From Capitulum mitella (Eukaryota; Arthropoda; Thecostraca; Pollicipedomorpha; Pollicipedidae): a stretch of DNA of 64,000 bases. Of this stretch, positions 1,001-40,300 are shown in pieces. The translations under genes and the position numbers were made by a program. Location of the stretch: NCBI GenBank assembly GCA_030062745.1, contig CP099848.1, positions 4,226,685-4,290,684 of the forward strand. Direction: 5' to 3'. Under the pieces are notes generated by a model. The model saw only the letters and a program-made list of their open reading frames with translations, had not been told where the DNA came from and searched no databases. Numbering within the stretch: position 1 is the first letter of the stretch; every line of letters begins with the position of its first letter.

Positions 1001-1164
1001 ATGCCTTCTACTTTCACTGCCGCGCGGGAGACATTTGTGACGACTTTTCTGACGGTGTTGTGCGCGCTCGTGCAATCATCATTTCACGTGCGAACCCGGC
1101 TTCTGTGTCATAAGTTGGGCGTGACGGAAGATTGCTGTCAGCCTGTTGTTCAGTGTTCGCCGGT

Positions 1165-12346
<11,182 letters not shown>

Positions 12347-12469: not shown

Positions 12470-13640
12470 GTGGCCGGGAATCGGAGCTTTGGTGAAGGTG
12501 AAGGTGGTGGAGGGAGACTGGAGCGCCGACACCAACGCTGCTGCAGTGGGACGGTGCACGTTGCTGTTGAACGAGTGGAAGTGCGTTACAGGTTCGAGAT
12601 AGCTGGTGCACTTTTCTTGAGGATGATACTGGTAAGGAACGAACATAGCAGGAATGAAATGTTTTTTTCGGGGAATATGCTACAAAGTTCGGGAGTGCAA
12701 CTCGGTTGAACGTGTTGGGTCATCGTTGGGGCGGGTAAGACACGGGTTAATCGTGATCGTAAGCTTCAAGAACCGCTGGTACCAGAGGTGGGTTCAGAAA
12801 AAGTAAAGAAGAGCTGACGCAGTGGGATGAGTTGTGTCCTGCATCTTCGCAGTTTTTTTTCTTACCTGTTTTCGCGAGAATTGGAAACTGGAAACTGCAA
12901 GGACCCGTTTAAGAATACAGGACCCCGCTTTCGATCCGTTCCCGATCTACCACTGCTCAAGGCATTCGTTACTCTCTGTGGACATCTGATATGATCCTAG
13001 CAGCAGTACTAAAGCAACAATAATATTGTAAAAGGAACATGAATTTGGGGATGGGATTTCTCTAACCGTTGATATGGAAGCGCCGCTGTGATATGGAAAC
13101 AACTCTGTGTCGCGCATAAACAAAAGAAATCGGGGCGCGGTGGCACTGCGGCAGTGGGTTGTCTTCACGTGTAAGATAAGGTGATTTTTCGTACTTTTTA
13201 CGCTGCATATTTATGCTGGTATATTCTTTTGCGCTGGGCTAATGCGTCTTGTCACTTGTATGGACAGCGCTCGCTCGACAGGTTTTTTTTCTGTGTAAAG
13301 TGCGTTGCTTCCATGGGAAACGTGGGATGATTTCTCCTTTACCTGTTTAACCGGTGTGTAATTTACAAATGTTGAAAATGCGATTTGGTGATCTTAAGTT
13401 TAGGCACCAAGTAAACAGCCTTCTGACCTGACAGGATATGAACTGTTATTGTTTTAAGGCAGGCAGAAATTATGGTTTTGATGAACATCCATAAAATGAT
13501 GAATTTACATTGTGTAATTAGAACTCTAGAAATGTTTTTTTTTCCTAAAAAAACGTACTGTGACATTTTTTGCCAGCTAAATCCATTGATAGATAAGCTT
13601 TTGTATGAATTAGAAGTTTGCAAAGTAAGCATTCACCAAG
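12470..13640. other. Intergenic region between KARS1 and TFIIF beta
   Basis: No coding region is recognised. If TFIIF beta has a non-coding first exon it should lie in this stretch or just after it. A CACGTGTAAGAT donor-like site sits near 13166 but cannot be confirmed. Confidence 0.35.
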
Positions 13641-13643
13641 GCA

Positions 13644-14121
13644 GAGATGTGCCTGGATCCTGATAGATTGCAGATTATCCCCATTTAGTGGGCAATTCTT
13701 TAGAAGCGCACACCATAAACCAAGCACACTGGATGACACATATACGGCGTGCGTGGCAAAAGGAGATGCCAGCTGTTGCAAGAAACAACAACATTATGCA
13801 CTGGAGCTCCAGGGTCGTAGATCACCTACTATTCGCTCTTGATTTACACAGCAGGTTAGGTTAGGTTAGGCTAGGTTAGGTTAGGTTAGGTTAGGTTAGG
13901 TAAGGTTAAGTTAGGTTAGGTTAGCGAATAGTAGGTAATCCACGACCCTGGAGCTCCAGTGCATAATGTTGTTGTTTCTCGCAACAGCTGACGTCTCCTT
14001 TTGCCACGTGCGCCGTATATGTGTCATCCAGTGTGCTTGGTTTATGGCGCACACTTCTAAAGGATTACCGAGATATGCCTGGATCCTGATAGAATGCAGA
14101 TTATCCCCATTTAATGTGCAA
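13644..14121. mobile_element. Inverted repeat with TTAGG centre, flanked by 52-bp direct repeats
   Basis: Order is A-B-(TTAGG)n-B'-A. A is a 52-bp direct repeat (13644-13695 and 14070-14121; about four mismatches). B (about 13692-13837) and B' (about 13923-14068) are inverted copies of about 145 bp with scattered mismatches. They share ACTGGAGCTCCAG and a CAACAACATTATG block. The telomere-type repeat lies between them. The arms contain CpGs while A and the surroundings do not, suggesting a later insertion into a CpG-poor region with duplication of A. It could be a foldback element, or telomeric DNA captured at a break. No open frame. Confidence 0.8.
13854..13924 (+). repeat. Interstitial telomeric repeat (TTAGG)n
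   Basis: About 14 units of GGTTA with a few variants (CTAGG, TAAGG, TTAAG). TTAGG is the ancestral arthropod telomere repeat, so this supports an arthropod source. The block is at the exact centre of the inverted repeat described in the enclosing entry. Confidence 0.93.
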
Positions 14122-14234
14122 CCCATCTTTGATCTGGGCAGGTCACTGCATCATCTGAAAAAAGTCCTGTCTCTCTGGAAAAAAGCCATGCCCAAATGAT
14201 GCAGCACTTATCCTGATCAACTTAGAATCTGACG

Positions 14235-16450
14235 CAAAATGAGGATAACCTGGTGCCCATTGGGATGCCATCCAATGTATCTGTGGTGGGCATTGCCAAA
14301 AACCCTTGACAGTTTTGATAACTTCTTGTTTTGTGTGTCACTCAAATTGTGGGAAGCCTATGCTGGTGACATTCTGGGTAGCAATGGAAGCATTTTGCTG
14401 CTGTAGATGCCCTTCTATCAGCAGAGCCCCACTCATAAACTGACCTACCAGGCCCACCAGGCTACCTTTATTGGTGCATTCTGTCAAACTGGTATTCTTA
14501 AATTAACTTGTGACACCACACAAATTACCTTGGTAGGCTTATCAAGTTACCTCAAAGTTAGTCCTTGGGTGCATGTAGGTACATCTAATAAGTATTGTGG
14601 CCTCCATCAAATTGTAAACAATCAATCCCCAACACATGTGCATGTGCTTCCAGCAGAGGTTGCAATTTGTTGACAGTGCAAAGCAATCCAGGTTCAGAAT
14701 GTTGGATGCCTTTGTGGACAAGAAATGCACAAAGCTGTGCTCTGATAGGGTCAGTGTGGCCAAATTCAGTCAGTTGGGTGCCAGGACTGGATCCCTCTGT
14801 TGCTAAGTTTGCTTGCAGCTGTATTGTTCCTCCCCTTATCTGAGACCAACCAATCAGCACTGAGCAGAGGATGTCACCAAGCTGGTGTCTAACTGCCCCA
14901 GGCAATACAAATTTGACAGGCAGGTATGGATGCAAAGGGTGCAAAGGTCAATGGAGAGGTAGCCAGTAACTAGAGGTGGTGATTCACAACCATGGCAGGA
15001 ACAAGTCTGACAGGATGAATTTTAATCTACATCCTTGACACCTGACTGGACTGAATTTGGCCATGCTGCAGAGGGGTTCATTGACCATTTCATTTAGTTT
15101 CTTTTGTTGTTAAATTTCCCATTGTTATGCATGCCCTTGGTGTTATTTATCACAACAGTGTAGATTAGGCTTTTGTAGGTTGGAACATCTTAGCAGTGCA
15201 GGCCTGTTATGATGTTCACATGAACTGTTGGTTGTCAAACCAAGGCCTTTAAGCATGAAACAAAAAAGGACCATTAAAATATGTGTAACACTACTGTGGT
15301 ATATCCTCTGCTCCCTGAAGAGTGAAATTTGGAAATAATTTTTTTACCTCATCAGATTTTGCACAAGCCTCACCACTGTTAGTTTTACCAAGGTCAGCAA
15401 TTTCTGCTTGTGGTCATTACCTCACCATTTCTGCTTATCAATCTCATCTATTCTGGTTCAGTACTAACTATTTTTTTGCAGCTTGTATTCTTTGAACCAC
15501 AAATTTCAGCCCTTTTTAGTGTTATTGCATCATCAACAACACCAGCTCTGTGATGCAGCCTATATTTTATTTGTTGGCATGAACTGTACAATGCCATGTA
15601 TTTTCCCTAGTGAGTGGTAAGTTATCTACTCATGTGTTGGCATGAAGCCTGCCAGAGCATATGCCAGCCTTGCAACCATTAGTGCAGAATGACTGGGGTA
15701 TGGGGAGTGGAGGCAGTGAGGGCATTTTTCCCCAACTTGAGAAGATTCAGGATTGTCCCATTGATGATGTGGGAAAAGAGGGGCCTTGGAAATGTTGCTT
15801 TCCTGTGCTGGCCTGTATACCTGATGCTGCTACTGCTGGCAGTAACCTCTAGTTTCAATGTGATGTGAGAAGAACTTAATCCAGATGCTACAAGTAGCAA
15901 ATGGGGGTTATCAGACTTTTCTCTGCTAGGAATCAGCTTCCATTCTGCATCCTCTCAATCCAGCAGTGTTGTCAGTGCTGCACACAGGAGGCAACTAGTT
16001 GTTGGAACATTAACTTTAATACATATCAGCATTTGAAGTTACCTTAAAACTCCATACAGTGTCTTTATATACCCTTGTTTGCATCAGAAAGCCTTCAGGA
16101 ACAGTCAAAAACAGTGTTGTGGCATAAATAAACACAGCATTTATAAAATTGCAGGTGTGTAATAAATGGAATGTAAAATGGTGTGTGAGGTCAAGAATAG
16201 TCTTCATTAATCTCTCATTGCATTACAACAAACTGCATAGCATCAACACCTGCACACATGCCCACACCTACATGGCATACTAATGCCATCTCACAGCACC
16301 AAGTTGTCACTGAAGAGGAAGTGAATCAAAATAATCCTGGAACATAATCAAATATTGTCCTTGTGGCAGCATCATTTTCACATGTGGACCTGGGACAACC
16401 ATCATAATATTTAGCACCAAAATGTGCACAAGTTATGTACTAAAGACTAC
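14235..16450. other. CpG-free desert, 2216 bp
   Basis: I read every line from 14235 to 16450 and found no CpG dinucleotide, including across line breaks. Flanking sequence on the left (13383-13705 and 14122-14232) is also almost CpG-free. TG and CA are frequent. It holds no recognisable coding sequence or RNA gene. It ends about 200 bp before the TFIIF beta ATG and may be its 5' UTR intron. Confidence 0.9.
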
Positions 16451-16589
16451 CGAAAATTTAAGAATTTGACTCCTTTGTTACAATGTAATAAGTCAGGGAA
16501 AAAGTGGTTACGTAGGATGCGCTTCAGTAAATCGCTAGCCCGCATGTTGCATTTTAACCATTAGTTGGTCATTGGCACATTTCATATTG

Positions 16590-16604
16590 CCCCTTTTGTT
16601 ACAG
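16590..16604 (+). promoter_or_regulatory. GTF2F2: Candidate splice acceptor in the TFIIF beta 5' UTR
   Basis: CCCCTTTTGTTACAG lies 62 bp before the ATG and is a good pyrimidine tract plus AG. The sequence TTTTAACCATTAG upstream could hold a branch point. If used, an untranslated first exon lies upstream, with the CpG desert as intron. Not provable from this sequence. Confidence 0.4.
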
Positions 16605-16666: not shown

Positions 16667-17434
16667 ATGTCAACCCAAGCGCAGGAGCACTCGGTGGACT
16701 GCTCGAACGCGGCGCGCGGCGTCTGGCTGGTGAAGGTGCCCAAGTACATCTCGGAGCGGTGGCAGGCGGCGCCGGGCAACATCGAGGCCGGCCGGCTCAA
16801 GATCGTCAAGGCGCCCGGCCAGAAGCCGAGCGTGACCTTCACGCTGAGCGAGGCCATCATGGCCATGGAGCGCGAGCCGATCCCGAAGGAGCACCAGTTC
16901 TCGATCAGCAACGTGGGTGGCCAGACGCTGGGCGTGTTCTCGCTGACGGCGCCGCGCAACAGCGACGCCGTGGTGCCCGAGCGGGAGACGCTCGCCATCG
17001 AGGGCAAGGTGATCCAGCGCGCCGAGTGTCGGCCGCTTGGCGACGCCAGCTACATGCGCCTGAAGCGCGAGAAGATCCGGCGCGCGGTGCAGCCCGGCCG
17101 CAAGCTGAAGACCATCTCTGACGTGGTGCACATCAAGCCCGTGTCCGACCACCGGCACAACATCGAGTTCGACCGCCGCAAGAAGGAGCAGGGCAAGAAG
17201 ATGCGCGACGACCGCGAGAAGGTGCTCGCCATGCTGTTCGCCGCGTTCGAGAAGCACCAGTTCTACAACATCAAGGACCTGGTGCGCCTCACGCTGCAGC
17301 CGGTCATGTACCTGAAGGAGATCCTGAACGAGGTGTGCAACTACAACATGAAGAACCCGCACCGCAACATGTACGAGCTGAAGCCGGAGTACCGGCACTA
17401 CTCGGACGAGAAGCAGGCCGACGGTGACGACTAA
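16667..17434 (+). CDS. GTF2F2: Transcription initiation factor TFIIF subunit beta (RAP30), single exon
   Basis: The small subunit of TFIIF binds RNA polymerase II with RAP74 and helps bring it to the promoter. 255 aa, against 249 in human. The N-terminal dimerisation domain starts with GVWLVKVPKYISERW (18-32). The middle has the conserved AECRP and YMRLKREKIRRA stretch. The C-terminal winged-helix DNA-binding domain spans about 180-244 (REKVLAMLFAAFEKHQFYNI, LKEILNEVCNYNMKNPH). The ATG at 16667 is chosen over an in-frame ATG at 16565 because the extra 34 residues are unlike the family and cross a likely splice acceptor. The coding region is uninterrupted, although the human gene is multi-exon. 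Intact frame, no poly(A) tract and normal GC-rich codon use argue for a functional gene with lost introns rather than a dead retrocopy. No AATAAA found nearby. Confidence 0.95.
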   Translation: MSTQAQEHSVDCSNAARGVWLVKVPKYISERWQAAPGNIEAGRLKIVKAPGQKPSVTFTLSEAIMAMEREPIPKEHQFSISNVGGQTLGVFSLTAPRNSDAVVPERETLAIEGKVIQRAECRPLGDASYMRLKREKIRRAVQPGRKLKTISDVVHIKPVSDHRHNIEFDRRKKEQGKKMRDDREKVLAMLFAAFEKHQFYNIKDLVRLTLQPVMYLKEILNEVCNYNMKNPHRNMYELKPEYRHYSDEKQADGDD

Positions 17435-31300: not shown

Positions 31301-34300
31301 CAGGGCATCCCTTACTCGAGTTTAAACATGTAAAGTCTGATAGAGGAGCATGCGAGCAAGCGTTTGAAATGTCGAGTACATTTTTCAGATCGAGATCAAC
31401 AAGAAGCGCGACAGCGAGCTGCTGAAGCTCCGGAAGCTGCTGGAGGATGTCCACCTGGAGAGCGAGGACAGCATACATATCCTGAAGAAGAAGCATCAGG
31501 AGGCCATCCAAGACTACATAGATCAGCTCGATGCGATGTCCAAGACCAGATCGAGGTAACAGACCTGCAGAAGCTGTTACGAAGTCGCCACCGCCAAAGA
31601 TAATTCATCGCGAGCTTTTGCCAAGAAAACCGCGAAGAACGTAAGGTTGCGGGCCACACCAGCTTTTTGATTGAGTTCTGAGATCCTCCATCGGTGAAAT
31701 ATCTAGCAGATAATTAGATAATCCGCTGCAGAGCAAGCAGACTGCCTGCAGCATACGCATTCATCAAGAAGAGACACCCAAAAGAACACACTCAGCCACG
31801 ATAAAAAAATGATGCGCAAATGATATACCAATTGTTCCCATAAAATGCCCATAAAATGCACATTGGCTGGCCTGGACTGCAGGCACTTTGTGTAATGGCT
31901 AATTAAATATCGTGGAATTTTTCCTGCCCGTTCGCATGACATCCCAAAAATCTAGGGTTACGCAGCTTGGTGACGTGTGTTATGATGCGGTAATGTCGAC
32001 GTATTTAATGCCACGTTATTTTTGTTAGGCTAGAGAAGGAAAAGAACAAACTCCAGAATGAGATGTACGAGCTCATCAGTCAGATGGAGGGGGCTACCAA
32101 GGAAAAGGTGAGGACAATTTCCCTTTTAGCGGGAAAATATTGTGGACCTCCACTATTCGCGACTTTGCCGTTCGTGGGTCAGCGTATTCACGTTTTTTTG
32201 GGGGGCAGAATATTTTAAAAAAATCACAGGAGCATATCTCTTACATCTTTCGCAGCGAAAGTTGTCCTTGCGGTTCACAGTGTTTTTATTGCATGTATAC
32301 GGTGAAAAATACTGTTGTATATCGCTATGATGTGTAGTTACTATACGTATTGGTATGTCCCGTAGCGCACAGGAAACATACAAACATTCTACGGTATACA
32401 CAAATCTCCAGCTCTGTCCTCAGAATGAGAGCTTGCCCGTGATTGCTTCAAAGGGCAGCGTTCCTTTACCCATACTCGTGTCGTTTCTTCTAGTTGTTTT
32501 GGCCGGGAAAAGGTCGGGCCCAATCATAGGCTTACGATAATTTTTCTGCGCCTGTGATTGGCTCGCTTTAGGTAAGAGTAGGGATGACTCAAGACTGTTT
32601 TGCACGAGCCATGTTTCCGGCCGTGCGCCCTAACTCAACAAGAATAAGAACGGGCCGTATTCAGACAAAATGGCGCTGATCCGGCCGCTGGTCGCTCGTC
32701 ATCACACCGCAGGCACACAGAATCAGCCACTATTTATCACAGGCGGGGGCAGAGCCAGATGCTGGACGCCAAATGTGTATATGTATCTGTGCGGATCTAT
32801 AGGAAGTATTACGGCATATACGAGTATGTGCCTTGAAATGCACTTACTGGTCCGGTAGTCGGTCTGTAGACAATGAGAATAACTTAACCCTATTCCCGGA
32901 GAGCCATGGCATGGCCGATTCCCGGCAGGGGGGATTTGCCCCCCCCCCTGAGATCTCGAGAACTACACATCTGATTTCATCGCAACGAACGGCAATCGAT
33001 TTGCCATGGCGTAAAGTACACTTCGAAACAAACTCAAAATTTCGAAAAGAGTGGATACAGAGGGACAAAAGTAAAAAAAATGGGGAGCACTTTTGGACTT
33101 CTTATAACTCCATTTTTAATAGACCGATTTCGATGAAATTGGCATGAATCGGTAGATTATTGATGGGGCGTTTAAAATGGTACACACATGTGAAATTTTG
33201 AGAAAATTCATTGGCGTTCACAGGGTTTTAAAAATGAGTGGATTAGTTTTTTAACAACTGAGTGAACAAAAAAGGCAAAACACTTTTTTGGGCTTCTTCT
33301 AGTCATATTATGCTAGAAAAGTACAAATCGTATTGCGGTGTTCGTAAAATGTTAGCATAAGCGGTGCCAGGGACATGAAAAGGGGAACTGTCATGGTCAT
33401 ATGCTCATCAGATTAGCTTGTGACCTTTGACCTTAAATGACCTCCAGTGACCTTGGAATTACTCGGAATGATCTCATGTGCATTTAATGTTATCTGTAAA
33501 CGTTTTCAATTATTTGGATTCACTCAATTTAGAAAATTTCGTTTTATGCCTATTGTGATACAGGTTAAGCACACTGACATTTTAGACCTGATATCAAGCT
33601 GAAACTTGATACACAAGAAGAGGGCTCCATTCTACGTCATACATGCTCTGGGTTTGGCATTTCAAAAAATAGCGCCGAAATTATTACTATGAAACCGAAT
33701 TTCGTTTTTTGACCTTGAGCTGACCTTATAAAGTGACCTCAGATGAACAAAATTGTATTTGCATGTTGAACCAACTATTAAGTTATACATTCATATGAAG
33801 TTTCAAGTTTTATCTTAAAAACGCTATTTTTGGCAGTCATTTTCCTTTTACCCTCAACAGGGCTAAAAATGGCCTGAGGTGCCTCCCAAAAACGTTGCCT
33901 AGCTCCGCCCCTGAACAGAACAGAATATCCAAATTTTGTCACAGTACGTAGAAAGAATAGCTAGGAAAGGTAACCAAGTTCTGTGAAGCTGCGCCAAAAA
34001 CCCTGGAATTGGCAAGCAGAAAGCCCGAGGGGGGGGGGCGGATTCAGCCCCCCGTTGGGAATAGGGTTAAACAGAAAAAACAATGGTTTTTGGGTTAGGT
34101 GCAGTTTATTCGCGGATTCACCTTATCCGCAAGGGTTCAGCGCATGGCCCCACGAAAAGTGGTGTCCACTGTATACGTCAAAGATGCTTTGGAGAAATTC
34201 CCATTTTGCGATTTGACTGCACCATCTGTTCATATCAAATCTTGCTCAATTTTGTTTCATGGGGCATTTCGCCAGAAAGTTACCTGCAGCTGCTTTGAAG

Positions 34301-37300
34301 ATGCAACATGTCATTACAACGGCTTCTAGCCGTAGCAGCTAAATAAATCCGGGCAGTACGACAGCAAAATTCCGAACCACAAATGCAGTCTCTGCCAGTG
34401 TCTGGCATTACAAGCTGCTGTCTGGACAGCACCGGAGATGGCGTCCGCTGGTCATTCGTGACCGTGACCTGCGCCGTGACCCTCGCTCGTAACGGCAGGT
34501 CGTCATCTCGAAACACTGCGAGAAGCTGGAGATCCAGGTGCACGAGCTGAACGTCAAGATTGAGGAGATCAACAGGACGGTGATCGACCTGACCAGTATC
34601 AAGACCAGGATCTCGCAGGTGCGACGCTGCCGTCTTCTTCGCGAAACACGGAGTCTTGAGGACAAGTCATGGCTGAAGATTTTTAGGGTCTACACCTCCC
34701 AGTTTTCGGAAATTTTAGCACTAGGCCTGCGACAATGTCATGAAGGAAATGGTCTAGAATTCTAGCCAGAAGCCCGGATAATTTCCGGAAATCTCCACCT
34801 GTGCAACGGATCATTGAATGGTGTTGTTGATAGGCCTCACCAGAATCAGTTGAAAGGGTCAGAAAGGAAAACCAGGATCTTACGGTCAAATGTTAACCAA
34901 ATGTTCACTGGGCATCAATTACGCGTAGCACATATGAATTTCCAAACGATGTGAGCATGCGCAGTCGTTTTCGAACTGTTCCACCGTCTCCTCCCAGGAA
35001 AACATCGCTCTCACCAAGGAGGTGCAGGACCTGAAAGTCAGCATGGAGAACGTGCAGTACACCAAGCACCAGCTGCAGACGGCCCTGAACGACTCCAAGC
35101 GTCGTCTGGAGGAGGAGGACAGGGTAAGCGCTGGGTGCTATGTCAGGTGTACACAGCCCTAGCATGCTATGGACATTTGCCAAATCATGTGACCTCTTTT
35201 GTTGCTCTTAACCGAATGATATGGTTGAACGGAAACCGTTGTCGGCCCGTTCATCGTCAGATAATCGGTTCTGGTTGAAGGAGCACGTCTTGATTTCCTT
35301 CAAGGGGCTAAGTCATGATTGTTTCATAGCTGCTCGTAATATGTTCCCGACAACGAACTAACATTACTGTATTCAACGGAAATGAACGTGACATATCGAT
35401 CTTCGCCGTCAATATTGCCCTTATTTCAACAATACGCATGCTGACCTGAGGTAATTACGGTCGATTTCACGCCATCTTCTCCCACGGCATCCAGAAAACT
35501 TCACTGACTCCGTCGAAGGGCCTCGTGACTCACAGCCCGAATTTTCGCTGAAGCGTGCATCAGTCTGAAGCGGTGGACCGCGAGCTGTTCGGGTTGAACC
35601 TGGACCCGCCACTGTCCACCGCAGAACCTGGTGACATGTCGACACCGTGACGTGATACTCCGACCTGATGCTCCAATGACCTCCTCGTGGCTCTAGGAGA
35701 CCTGACGTAGGCGGAATGATGATTCAGTGATCTGACTAACTGACAATCTTATGACTCGATGACCTGGTGCCCTTGAGCCTCTCCTGTCTTATGGTCTCAC
35801 GACCTGAGGTTATTATGACCCGTGATCTGACGACCTGATTATCCGACGACCTCAGAACCGAACGACCTGACGACCCGGTTGCCCGACGACCTGTGACCCG
35901 GCGACCTGACGACCCGGTGACCTGGTGACCCGGCCCGCAGCGCCGCAGTACGCTGGAGTCGCAGCTGCACACGGTGGAGCTGGAGCTGGAGTCGGTACGT
36001 CACCAACTGGAGGAGGAGTCCGAGGTGCGCCTCGAGCTTGAGCGCCAGCTGGTCAAGGCCAAGGCCGACGTCGACAGCTGGCGCGTCAAATACGAGACCG
36101 AGGCCCAGGCGCGCGCCGAAGAGATCGAGGAGCTCAGGTTGGTCTGGGCACGCCGCCAGGAAATCCCGGATTGGTGCGAAAATCGAGCTCGGCTGAGCCA
36201 TCGTTCAGCAGAGGCATAATGTCTAAGTCTCTGATGTTGAAGGTACTAGTTCATCAAAACACGCCTGCGCGCACAAACGACTTCCCTCCGTGGAGCTATG
36301 CAAGGGTTGAAAACGAAATCGCAACACTTTGACAGTAAAAAAAAACTACGCATCTCATCACGAAATTGTTAATCACTCCAAAATTACCAGGACAGTACTG
36401 AATATCGCAGCATTTAACCCACTCTGTCGTGGGGGAATCGGTTTTACCGCTCTTCAGTTATTTTTTCTTGAATATCTCTTGAAAGATTTGAGTTACGTAT
36501 CTGAAACTCACAGTACCTTTTCAAGGATGATAAGCGATTCTTAACCCTATTCCCGGCAGGGGGGGCGGAATCGGCCCCCCCCCTCGGGTTTTTTGCTTGC
36601 CAATTCCAGGCTTTTTAACACAGCTTCACGAAACTTGGTGACTTTTCCTAGCTATTCTTTCTACGTGCTGTGACAAAATTTCAAAATTCTATTTTGCTCA
36701 GGGGCGGAGCCAGGCAACGTTTTTGGGAGGCACCTCATGCCATTTTTGGCCATGTTAAGGGTAAAAGGAAAATGTCTGCCAAAAACAGAGTTTTAGAGCT
36801 AGAACTTAAAACGTTATATGGATGTATAGCTAAATAGTTGGGCAATGTGCAGATATAATTTTGTTTATCTGAGGTCATTTTACAAGGTCAGGTCAAGGTC
36901 AAAAATCAAAATTTGTTTTTTTTGCTATAATTTCGGCGCCATTTTTTCAAATGCAAAACCCAGAGTATATATAACGTAAAAGGGTGCCCTCTACTTTTGT
37001 ATCAAGTTTCAGCTTGATATCGGGTCGGGTCACGGAAATATGACCTAAAATGTCAGTGCGCGTACCCTATATCGCAATAGCCAAAAAATGAAATTTTTGA
37101 AATAGAGTGAATTCAAATGATTGAAAACGTTTACAGATAATATTAAATGCACACGAGATCATTACAAGTGACCCCAAGGTCACTGGAGGTCATTTAAGGT
37201 CAAAGGTCACAAGATGATCTGAGAAACGTGTAACCGTGACAGTTCCCCTTTTTCATATCCCTGGCACCGCCTATGCTAACATTATACAAACATTGTAATG

Positions 37301-40300
37301 CGATTTGTACTTCTTTAGTATAACATGACCAGCAGAGGCCAGAAAAGGGTGTTTGCCTCTTTTGTTCATTCAGTTGTTAGAAAACTAATCCTCCTATTTT
37401 TGAAACCCTGTGAACGCCCATGAATTTTCTCAAACTTTCGAGATTTGCGGACCCATGGTAAAAGCCCTATCCATAATCTCTCGATTCATGCCAGTTTCAT
37501 CGAAATCGGTCCATAAACAACGGAGTTATAAGAAGTCCAAAAGTACCCCCCATTTTGACCTTTTTTCCCCCCTGTATCCAGAAATTTCAAAATTTTTAAA
37601 ATTTCTTTTTATAAAAATGTAGTTCACGTGACGGCAAATTGATTGCCATTTGTTGTGATGAAATCGGACAAGTAGTTCTCGAGATCTCAGGGGGGGCCGA
37701 ATCCGCCCCCCCTGCCGGGAATCGACCATACCGTCTAGCCCTCCGGGAATAGGGTTAAGCCGTTTAAATCGGACCGTGACTTCCTGAGATACTAAGTTTT
37801 AAATCCGGTGGTGCACCGCCTTGCCGCGCATGGAAAGGCGGATGACCAGCAGTTAGAATCGTGACCTGACATGACCTCGGATGGTTTTTAAGTGTATTTG
37901 ACTGCACATCGTATCACATACTTATGGAGCGAATATCTGGGCCGTATTCGAGTTTCTAAAACACGCGAATCCACCAGACAGACAAAAAAGTGACGGTGGC
38001 CAAAACTTTAATATAAGCAATAACATGACTCTGTTTGGCCTGACCTGACCGAAGATGTAACGCGCAGAGCAGGCCAAATATGGTGATTTCAGAAAGACTA
38101 AGAGTGAGGCCATTCAGCAGTATCACTTTCAGTCCTCAAACACCACTAGTTTAGATTTTAGTGTGGGGGTCAAATTAGCCCCCATGACGGGGCGAGCAAG
38201 AGTGTGGCGGATTAAGACGTAGGCAAACATGACGGGCCGGGTTGTGAGATACTTCTTTGGGATAAGATTATGCGGTAGACAAGGTAACAGTAGGCAGTAG
38301 ACGCGCGGCGAACTGAACTTTGGCCTCGGCAACGCTTATCAGCTATTATGAAACAGGCCAATGCAGTGAGTCAAAGTCTATCCGCCGGGGTCTCAATACG
38401 GACAAGATTTAAAACGAACTTTACCAGTGCTTGTTATGAAAAGGTCATTGTAATCAATCGAAGCTGAGCTACTGTGGTTTCAACAAATTCTCGGATTATT
38501 CAGACTAGCTAACAGCTAAACACAACCATCCTGAATATCTGCTTCAAAATAACTTACTTGAAATAAAATGCGTGTCTTGTGCTGCAGGCGCAAGTTCGCG
38601 CTGAAGATCCAGGAGCAGGAGGAGCACATCGAGACCCTGATGGCCAAGCTGTCCCAGGTGGAGAAGCAGAAGTCGCGGCTGCAGTCCGAGGTCGAGGTGC
38701 TCATCATCGACCTCGAGAAGGCCAACGGCAACTGTCGCGAGCTGCAGAAGCGCGCCGAAACTGTGGAGCGCATGAACGCCGACCTCAAGAGCAAGGTGAG
38801 CACACAGCTAAGATATTGCGGTCCTCCGTGGTCATTGGCCGTCTAGTAGCTGAACAGGTTTCAGAACCGGGTGCCGCGTCATCATGGAGCCCAGCACTAG
38901 CCGTCAAGTCTAAGTAATGCTAAATGGAAACCATGAGACCCGGCTTCAAGTTAGAATAGAAAAGAGTGCAAAATAGAGAACTAACATCAAACAATTACAA
39001 GCGGCTGATTCTCCAAATGCAGGGTGTGTGATTGGCACGGGTTATGCCTTTCTCTGTGCTAAACATTACACAGTCGTTGTGACTTAGGCGCATGTACATT
39101 ATATTGTTGAAGACACTTTTTTCTGGAAAATTGGAGGAATTGGAAGAAAATTGCAACGACATTCCATTGGCGTTAGGTGGGGAAAAATCACGGAGCTTTG
39201 ATTATTTGACCTTGAATGTGACCACTTTATAACCCACTTGATCTCTTCTAACATGCTCTGACGATTTAAATGCGACCTTAATTACTCGTGAGGAGTGTGA
39301 TGTCAGTCGATCTTTTTCGTCTCTGTGACCTCGCCTGACCGTTCGTGACCCCTGTGACCTGCAGCTGGACGAACTGGCAGCTCTGTACGAGCAGAGCCAG
39401 CGCGATAATCGCGCCAAGGCCGCCGAAATTCAGCGGCTCAACGCCGAAAACGACAAGCTGAAGGAGCAGAACGGCAACCTGGGCCGTGAGAACAAGAAAC
39501 TCGAAGGTTTGTCGTTGCCCTATTTAAGTGCGCTTTGATTTTCATCACTTGGATCATGTTCTCAGCCAGAGCTTAGTTCCGTGCATACAGGAATCGGACC
39601 AGATTGTTCATTACTGACCGAGGGGGTAGGAGCATTCCAAAAAAGCGTGTGTGTTTGTGTCGAGGGGAGCAAAGACGTTTTTCCCACAGAGCTTATGCCA
39701 AATTTGCAAAAAAAGTGTGCGGGACAGGCATGGACCCGTTCCTCCCGTCCTACATCTATGATACTGACTTCAGCGAAAACGATATTTTAAAGAGTTGCGT
39801 TGTGGAGCGTTGCTGTCGAGCACAGCAGCTTACCTAAAAATGTTTACATCCGAAACCTATCACAGGTGAAAACCACGACCTGAAGAACGCGCTGGCGGAG
39901 CTGACTCGCCGCTACCACGAGCTGGAGCTGGAGAACCGTCGCCTGGAGAACGAGCGCCAGGAGCTGGCGACCGCCTACAAGGAGGCCGAGTCTGTGAGTG
40001 TTCGCAGCGTCAGAAACGAAGCGCATGGTCGATTTGCATCGCAAAGAGCTGGGCCTGATAACGTTCCAGCATGACCAACAGTATTCCGTAAACCACGGGT
40101 ACGCATAGGCTATGAAAGTACCTTTGTCTCGAGGGAAAAACCAAAGGCCATCCTTTTCAAGGATGCGGTTGGGACACTTTGGTTATCGAAAATAAACCCG
40201 TGCGGAGGTACGAGCCTGAGACTGAGCTTGAATAAAATTCAAGATGCTCATCAACTTCAATATTTTTTCCGCGGAAAAGCCTTCATTTTTTTCGGCGAGT

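What the first reader, a model, noticed from the sequence alone, without database searches (positions are those of the whole stretch)
14235..16450. A 2.2-kb stretch with zero CpG
Seen directly: no CpG in 2216 consecutive bases, while nearby exons and the paramyosin locus are CpG-rich. Known: methylated C in CpG mutates to T, and arthropod methylation is concentrated in expressed gene bodies, often near the 5' end. Inference: this block has been heavily germline-methylated for a long time and is probably transcribed as a 5' UTR intron of TFIIF beta. Total absence of CpG over this length is extreme for an invertebrate.
Basis: partly seen in the sequence, partly recalled or inferred. Interest (0 to 1): 0.78.

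Follow-up and report, generated by a model that had tools for sequence, protein, structure and literature searches.

The report
Methylation-eroded starts of housekeeping genes
A stretch of animal DNA just before the coding part of a basic transcription gene has lost every CpG letter pair, very probably because it has long been methylated in the germ line, and similar scars mark the front of other housekeeping genes sampled in this genome.

Summary
Confirmed. Window 14235-16450 has 0 CpG where composition predicts 98; whole-window CpG o/e is 0.97. A second block (1347-3900, 6 CpG, 91.5 expected) lies inside intron 1 of lysyl-tRNA synthetase. Beyond each block the coding exons are CpG-rich. In the same genome 6 of 7 sampled proteasome loci have a depleted domain (33% of 42 kb), against 2.1% of 200 kb random DNA and 0 of 3 cuticle-gene upstreams. 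A repeat copy inside the block lost every CpG of the family majority, 9 of 12 changes there being C>T or G>A; 5 of 7 fetched relatives, in CpG-normal DNA, keep 9-12. The genome encodes DNMT1, a DNMT3-type ADD domain and a TET match. Methylation and the TFIIF beta UTR exon were not measured. New variant of gene-body methylation: short, 5'-located, near-complete CpG loss.

The parts
14235..16450 (.). CpG-free run (the finding); HMM domain 14076-16437
13383..13690 (.). 5' edge of the same depleted stretch, before the younger inverted-repeat insertion (runs 13383-13553 and 13556-13706 CpG-free)
13171..16604 (+). putative 5'UTR intron of TFIIF beta (candidate donor GTAAGA at 13171, candidate acceptor TTACAG ending 16604); read from sequence only
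   Evidence: no RNA data
16667..17434 (+). TFIIF beta (GTF2F2/RAP30) coding region in one exon, CpG o/e 1.15, GC3 0.97
14786..15069 (.). old dispersed-repeat copy inside the block; 39 other places listed at 78-86% identity (40 of 343 candidates were scored); no CpG left here
13691..14069 (.). inverted-repeat element (arms 13691-13837 and 13923-14069, 91% complementary, TTAGG-type array between them), partly decayed CpGs
1165..1211 (+). KARS (lysyl-tRNA synthetase) exon 1
1347..3900 (.). second CpG-depleted domain, 6 CpG against 91.5 expected, inside KARS intron 1 (1212-4616)
4617..4767 (+). KARS exon 2, in a CpG-rich stretch (4501-5000 o/e 0.98)

Best explanation
The block is the mutational scar of long-standing germline CpG methylation over a short domain just downstream of the transcription start of a constitutive gene. 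Transcription of TFIIF beta probably starts near 13.1 kb. The first 200-300 bases stay unmethylated (CpG-normal up to 13382). From there to about 16.4 kb the DNA has been methylated in the germ line, and each methylated CpG has decayed to TpG or CpA. The last 150 bases of the putative 5'UTR intron and the coding exon lie beyond the domain and keep their CpGs. The same arrangement occurs in KARS and at most proteasome loci sampled. Shown: complete CpG loss, its C>T/G>A route, dependence on location, position inside KARS intron 1 and in the PSMA4 coding exon, enrichment at proteasome loci, presence of DNMT1, a DNMT3-type ADD domain and TET. Inferred: methylation itself, the TFIIF beta UTR exon and start, and recruitment by early-elongation chromatin.
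For: 0 CpG of 98 expected with TG/CA excess. Repeat copy in the block: no CpG left; C>T or G>A at 9 of 21 majority-CpG cytosine positions (both strands) against 10 of 143 other C/G positions, Fisher p 7e-5. Across 8 copies CpG density follows flank o/e (Spearman 0.83, p 0.01); in L007 a CpG-free run ends inside the copy. Inverted-repeat arms: 8 of 13 mismatched columns are CpG-type transitions, at 6 of 11 ancestral CpG sites. Depleted state covers 33.1% of 42 kb at 7 proteasome loci (6 of 7 with a domain), 2.1% of 200 kb random, 0% of 9 kb upstream of 3 cuticle genes. CpG-free runs of 500 or more: 6 of 7 proteasome 6-kb loci against 2 of 32 non-overlapping random 6-kb windows, p 6e-5. The KARS block lies between two coding exons. 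PSMA4 coding region depleted: o/e 0.23, GC3 0.54, Arg as 7 AGR and 4 CGN. Methylation enzymes encoded.
Against: No methylation or RNA data. One of 7 proteasome loci (L036) has no domain within -4 to +2 kb. Published arthropod methylation is mostly exon-enriched, and Daphnia introns are near zero (PMC7343188, PMC6097596, passages), the reverse of KARS here. The block has fewer CpGs than a human-like CpG mutability predicts (12.6-16.6 at a 15- to 10-fold excess), while the inverted-repeat arms do not ask for an unusual rate. The tissue-specific control is small: 3 of 7 planned cuticle loci, 3 kb each, and starts of control genes were not mapped. In one search two further proteasome exons outside PSMA4 are slightly low (0.82, 0.89). 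GA and TC dips in the block are not explained.
Confidence: 0.85

Rival explanations
1. Selection against CpG (for example in abundant intronic RNA or near the start) rather than mutational decay keeps the block CpG-free.
For: Zero of 98 is lower than a vertebrate-like mutability alone would leave; the KARS block is transcribed near the 5' end.
Against: An old non-coding repeat lost its CpGs mainly by C>T and G>A, in step with its location; decay is partial in the inverted repeat; the PSMA4 coding exon shows the same loss.
Confidence: 0.06
2. Assembly or base-calling artefact: methylated C read as T/A in long reads, or a foreign or misjoined segment.
For: Methylated CpG can cause long-read errors (recalled, no call).
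Against: The KARS block lies between two exons of one reading frame. PSMA4 in a depleted domain reads as a full-length protein (E 2e-133) with 7 of 11 arginines as AGR, which miscalls would not give. The block holds a repeat family found across this genome. The inverted repeat in the same stretch keeps 5 CpGs shared by both arms.
Confidence: 0.03
3. Silenced repeats or heterochromatin: the block is methylated because it carries transposable elements, not because it is the front of an active gene.
For: The block holds an old repeat copy, and an inverted-repeat element lies beside it.
Against: 5 of 7 fetched relatives of that repeat lie in CpG-normal DNA and keep 9-12 CpGs; depleted DNA is 2.1% of random chunks but 33% of proteasome loci.
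Confidence: 0.04

Closest known systems
[quoted passage not shown]
   Same: Housekeeping genes are the targets; CpG-poor conserved genes; repeats relatively hypomethylated.
   Different: There exons, introns and 3'UTRs are all raised; here loss is confined to a few kb with CpG-rich exons beyond. There methylation was measured, here inferred.
Daphnia and insect methylation at exons 2-4 (PMC6097596, passages seen)
   Same: 5'-biased, associated with highly expressed genes.
   Different: Daphnia introns are flat and near zero; here the depleted DNA in KARS (and putatively TFIIF beta) is intronic and the exon after it is CpG-rich.
Arthropod-wide exon-enriched methylation (PMC7343188, passages seen)
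   Same: Methylated genes vary less across tissues.
   Different: Exon enrichment in most species; [quoted passage not shown]
Spider Stegodyphus dumicola methylome (PMC6409797, passages seen)
   Same: Introns methylated about as much as exons; repeats inside genes share the state of the gene.
   Different: Whole gene bodies; no short 5' domain described in the passages seen.
CpG depletion in the copepod Eurytemora carolleeae (PMC11706791, passages seen)
   Same: CpG o/e read as a record of past methylation in a crustacean.
   Different: Whole coding regions (mean 0.5), lowest in ion-transport genes, highest in housekeeping genes; here most coding exons measured are near 1 and the loss lies at the front of housekeeping genes.
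5'-first remethylation in Nematostella, predicted best by H3K79me2/3 (PMC13345969, passages seen)
   Same: Geometry: recovery fastest at the 5' end, where H3K79me2/3 peaks.
   Different: The passages seen describe gene bodies, not a limit to the first kilobases; no chromatin data exist here.

Membership tests
germline gene-body methylation (mosaic invertebrate type) | CpG lost with matching TG/CA gain | tested here: met
   CG 0.00, TG 1.58, CA 1.65; repeat copy
germline gene-body methylation (mosaic invertebrate type) | lies within transcribed genes | tested here: met
   KARS block between coding exons; PSMA4 coding exon. For TFIIF beta itself only inferred
germline gene-body methylation (mosaic invertebrate type) | enriched at constitutive genes over random DNA | tested here: met
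   6 of 7 proteasome loci against 2 of 32 random 6-kb windows; 33.1% against 2.1% of bases
germline gene-body methylation (mosaic invertebrate type) | spares tissue-specific genes | tested here: inconclusive
   0 of 3 cuticle upstreams, no block near the P450 match of the window; few genes, starts not mapped
germline gene-body methylation (mosaic invertebrate type) | DNMT1 and DNMT3 encoded | tested here: met
   DNMT1 exon; ADD_DNMT3 match E 2e-9 over cut-off; a DNMT3 catalytic domain was not among the 4 PF00145 matches
germline gene-body methylation (mosaic invertebrate type) | 5mC present on the remaining CpGs in germ cells | not testable with these tools
   no methylation data
exon-enriched arthropod methylation (exons 2-4) | exons more depleted than introns | tested here: not met
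   KARS intron 1 block o/e 0.07 against 0.98 for 4501-5000 with exon 2. Of 8 exons measured (7 proteasome, TFIIF beta) 5 have o/e 1.0 or more, two 0.82 and 0.89, PSMA4 0.22-0.23

The most novel reading that the evidence does not exclude
In this genome (probably a barnacle) germline methylation is a short positional domain, about 0.2-0.3 kb to about 3 kb after the start of constitutive genes, laid down by early-elongation chromatin irrespective of exons. Inside it CpG mutability is several times the vertebrate value (about 30- to 60-fold over other transitions), so CpGs are erased almost completely, and the erased domain itself marks housekeeping promoters in raw sequence.
Probability: 0.4. Interest if true: 0.65.

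Novelty: new variant of a known kind. Interest (0 to 1): 0.5.

Why it matters
If methylation is confirmed, raw sequence alone would show where germline methylation begins and ends in constitutive genes. The on/off contrast next to CpG-normal exons, and a repeat that straddles an edge, make the question of what limits gene-body methylation to the 5' end directly testable. It also offers a place to measure CpG mutability where CpGs approach zero.

Tried and rejected
A two-state HMM separated GC-rich from ordinary DNA rather than depleted domains and was replaced by three states. One search printed a wrong flank value for the block copy (count divided by 1) and so a wrong Spearman value (0.33); corrected. 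Idea that depletion is intron-specific: rejected because the PSMA4 coding exon is depleted. Idea that domains end at exon 2: not general (KARS ends 0.7 kb before exon 2, TFIIF beta 0.15 kb before the candidate acceptor, L039 at 4007 just past the start of its matched exon at 4001). Loss of thymine glycosylase as the reason for completeness: two TDG-like loci are present, exon matches below the whole-family cut-off; the HhH-GPD search for MBD4 did not complete. Genes near the three randC3 domains not settled: one ORF has only a weak AP-4 beta match, E 0.046, two have weak TPR matches. Rfam (gathering threshold) and tRNA scans of the window gave nothing. The equilibrium simulation uses simple assumed rates and is a guide only.

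Full report
Observation. Window 14235-16450 holds no CpG in 2216 bases; its own base composition predicts 98. The window as a whole has CpG o/e 0.97. The next runs are 1212 and 1000 bases, both between 1347 and 3901, then nothing above 302. TG and CA are at 1.58 and 1.65; three control stretches of the window have 0.90-1.15. No other dinucleotide is missing, though GA (0.74) and TC (0.82) are lower than in the controls (0.92-1.06), which I do not explain. TG and CA counts are nearly equal (223 and 213), as decay on both strands would give.

Gene anatomy. The coding region at 16667-17431 is TFIIF beta (Pfam E 1.5e-19 and 2.9e-15; General transcription factor IIF subunit 2 chain E 7e-67), read in one exon. 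A splice acceptor candidate ends at 16604 and a donor candidate lies at 13171 (sequence), so the block would be a 5'UTR intron; this is inferred. The second block is firmer. KARS exon 1 (1165-1211) joins exon 2 (4617-4767) in frame to read KLSKNELKRR (the likeness to the human protein is recalled), and a later exon matches lysine-tRNA ligase chains (E 6e-31), so 1347-3900 lies inside intron 1. In KARS depletion starts 135 bases after the donor; in TFIIF beta 212 bases after the candidate donor. The CpG-normal stretches before both hold the string TTCACGTG (1083, 13164); it or its reverse complement occurs at 5 places in the window, so this may be chance.

The genome. The window is C10:4226685-4290684 of a 477-Mb genome in 16 contigs. 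A figure legend gives 16 chromosomes for the barnacles C. mitella and P. pollicipes (PMC11331182, passages). Barnacle is therefore my inference, not a test.

How CpGs were lost. The block contains an old copy of a dispersed repeat (window 14786-15069); one search lists 39 other places at 78-86% identity (40 of 343 candidates scored). Against the majority of the 7 fetched copies the block copy has no CpG left: of 21 CpG cytosine positions counted on both strands 9 show C>T or G>A and 3 other changes, against 10 such transitions at 143 other C/G positions (Fisher p 7e-5). Five of the 7 other copies (L003-L006, L008) sit in DNA with flank o/e 0.81-1.02 and keep 9-12 CpGs in the matched part; L002 sits in another depleted domain and keeps 1; in L007 a CpG-free run of 1627 bases ends inside the copy, whose 6 CpGs all lie beyond that point (the HMM sets the edge of that domain about 0.3 kb further on). 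Copy density follows flank o/e (Spearman 0.83, p 0.01, n = 8). The inverted repeat at 13691-14069 shows decay in progress: 8 of 13 mismatched columns between its arms are CpG-type transitions, at 6 of 11 ancestral sites, and 5 sites are still CpG in both arms.

Genome-wide. Proteasome genes were found with Pfam PF00227 (25 matches, 14 loci by my count). Seven loci were taken before their composition was seen, all with an exon matching the N-terminal part of the domain; two more loci of that kind were not taken. Six of 7 have a CpG-free run of 525-1407 bases; L036 has none above 120. A three-state HMM over the window and 39 of 44 loci (left out: L001, which repeats the window, and the methyltransferase loci L031-L034) gives 17 depleted domains, 28,051 bases, 90 CpG against 1073 expected (o/e 0.084). 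The TFIIF beta domain (0.009) is the lowest among domains over 500 bases. The depleted state covers 33.1% of the proteasome loci, 2.1% of the random chunks and none of 9 kb upstream of 3 cuticle genes. L002 and L007, which add two domains, came in by likeness to the repeat in the block and are not random. The cuticle control was meant to be 7 loci of 6 kb; 3 of 3 kb were obtained. Random chunks are not matched for genes, so part of the contrast is genic against intergenic. Chunk C8 has one 448-base domain at its very edge.

Position, not intron. PSMA4 (L035, E 2e-133) has its coding region in one exon. CpGs are normal to about 290 bases after the ATG, then nearly absent for 1.6 kb, so the coding exon itself is depleted: o/e 0.23, GC3 0.54, arginine as 7 AGR and 4 CGN. 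The other six proteasome exons have o/e 1.04, 1.01, 1.33, 0.82, 0.89 and 1.20 and TFIIF beta 1.15. L002 adds another likely first-intron case: an ORF with a SAP domain (Pfam E 8e-9), probably a first exon, followed by a domain at 1157-3297. At the other proteasome loci the domains lie upstream of the first matched exon, where a first intron may be, but first exons were not mapped. So the domain is best described by distance from the start, on the strength of few genes.

Machinery. DNMT1, DNMT2, a DNMT3-type ADD domain, a TET match and two TDG-like loci are encoded. A catalytic domain of DNMT3 was not among the four PF00145 matches.

How complete. A simple simulation returns o/e 0.21 at a CpG transition excess of 10, 0.08 at 30 and 0.04 at 60. 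All 17 domains together (0.084) suit about 30; the two window blocks (6 CpG in 4771 bases) about 60. These are rough, since the runs were partly chosen for being long and the rates are assumed, and the inverted repeat does not itself demand an unusual rate.

Mechanism. Most likely, start-site chromatin of the H3K4me3 type keeps the first 200-300 bases free of DNMT3 (general knowledge, recalled); downstream, early-elongation chromatin recruits it for about 3 kb; methylated CpGs then decay. In Nematostella remethylation is fastest at the 5' end and best predicted by H3K79me2/3 (PMC13345969, passages), which fits this geometry. That step is inference.

Comparison. Housekeeping-gene methylation is known in crayfish (PMC6172769) and 5' bias in Daphnia, but there in exons 2-4 with near-zero introns (PMC6097596). 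[quoted passage not shown] in a spider introns equal exons (PMC6409797), so intron methylation as such is not new. In the copepod Eurytemora housekeeping genes have the highest coding CpG o/e (PMC11706791); coding regions here are mostly high too, but DNA near the front is erased. All these papers were seen as passages. Of 7 papers holding barnacle, DNA methylation and CpG none is a barnacle methylome by its title; one search lists only 10 of 3,554 and shows none, so absence from print is not established. Verdict: real, strongly non-random, explained much as first proposed with two refinements; a new variant of gene-body methylation, moderately interesting.

Noticed in passing
window 5053-6278, 32883-34070, 36538-37758: A dispersed repeat of about 1.2 kb present three times in the window at 81-91% identity.
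   Followed up: no
window 8416-9069: 31-base tandem array of 21 copies in the KARS gene region.
   Followed up: no
window 13644-13695 and 14070-14121: A 52-base direct repeat (92%) flanks the inverted-repeat element, between whose arms lies a TTAGG-type array (13853-13924).
   Followed up: partly
L002 653-790: An ORF whose translation reads like one arm of the same inverted-repeat element lies just before another depleted domain.
   Followed up: no
G000 C4:9304101-9309667 and C5:22887715-22889603: Two thymine-DNA-glycosylase-like loci with similar exon matches, perhaps paralogues.
   Followed up: no
G000 C2, C9, C10, C11, C13: Clusters of chitin-binding cuticle genes (150 matches scored of 627 candidates).
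   Followed up: no
L030 joined to L007, 2501-3000 then 3029-5954: A GC-rich CpG-normal stretch immediately before a 2.9-kb depleted domain, looking like a gene start with no gene identified.
   Followed up: partly
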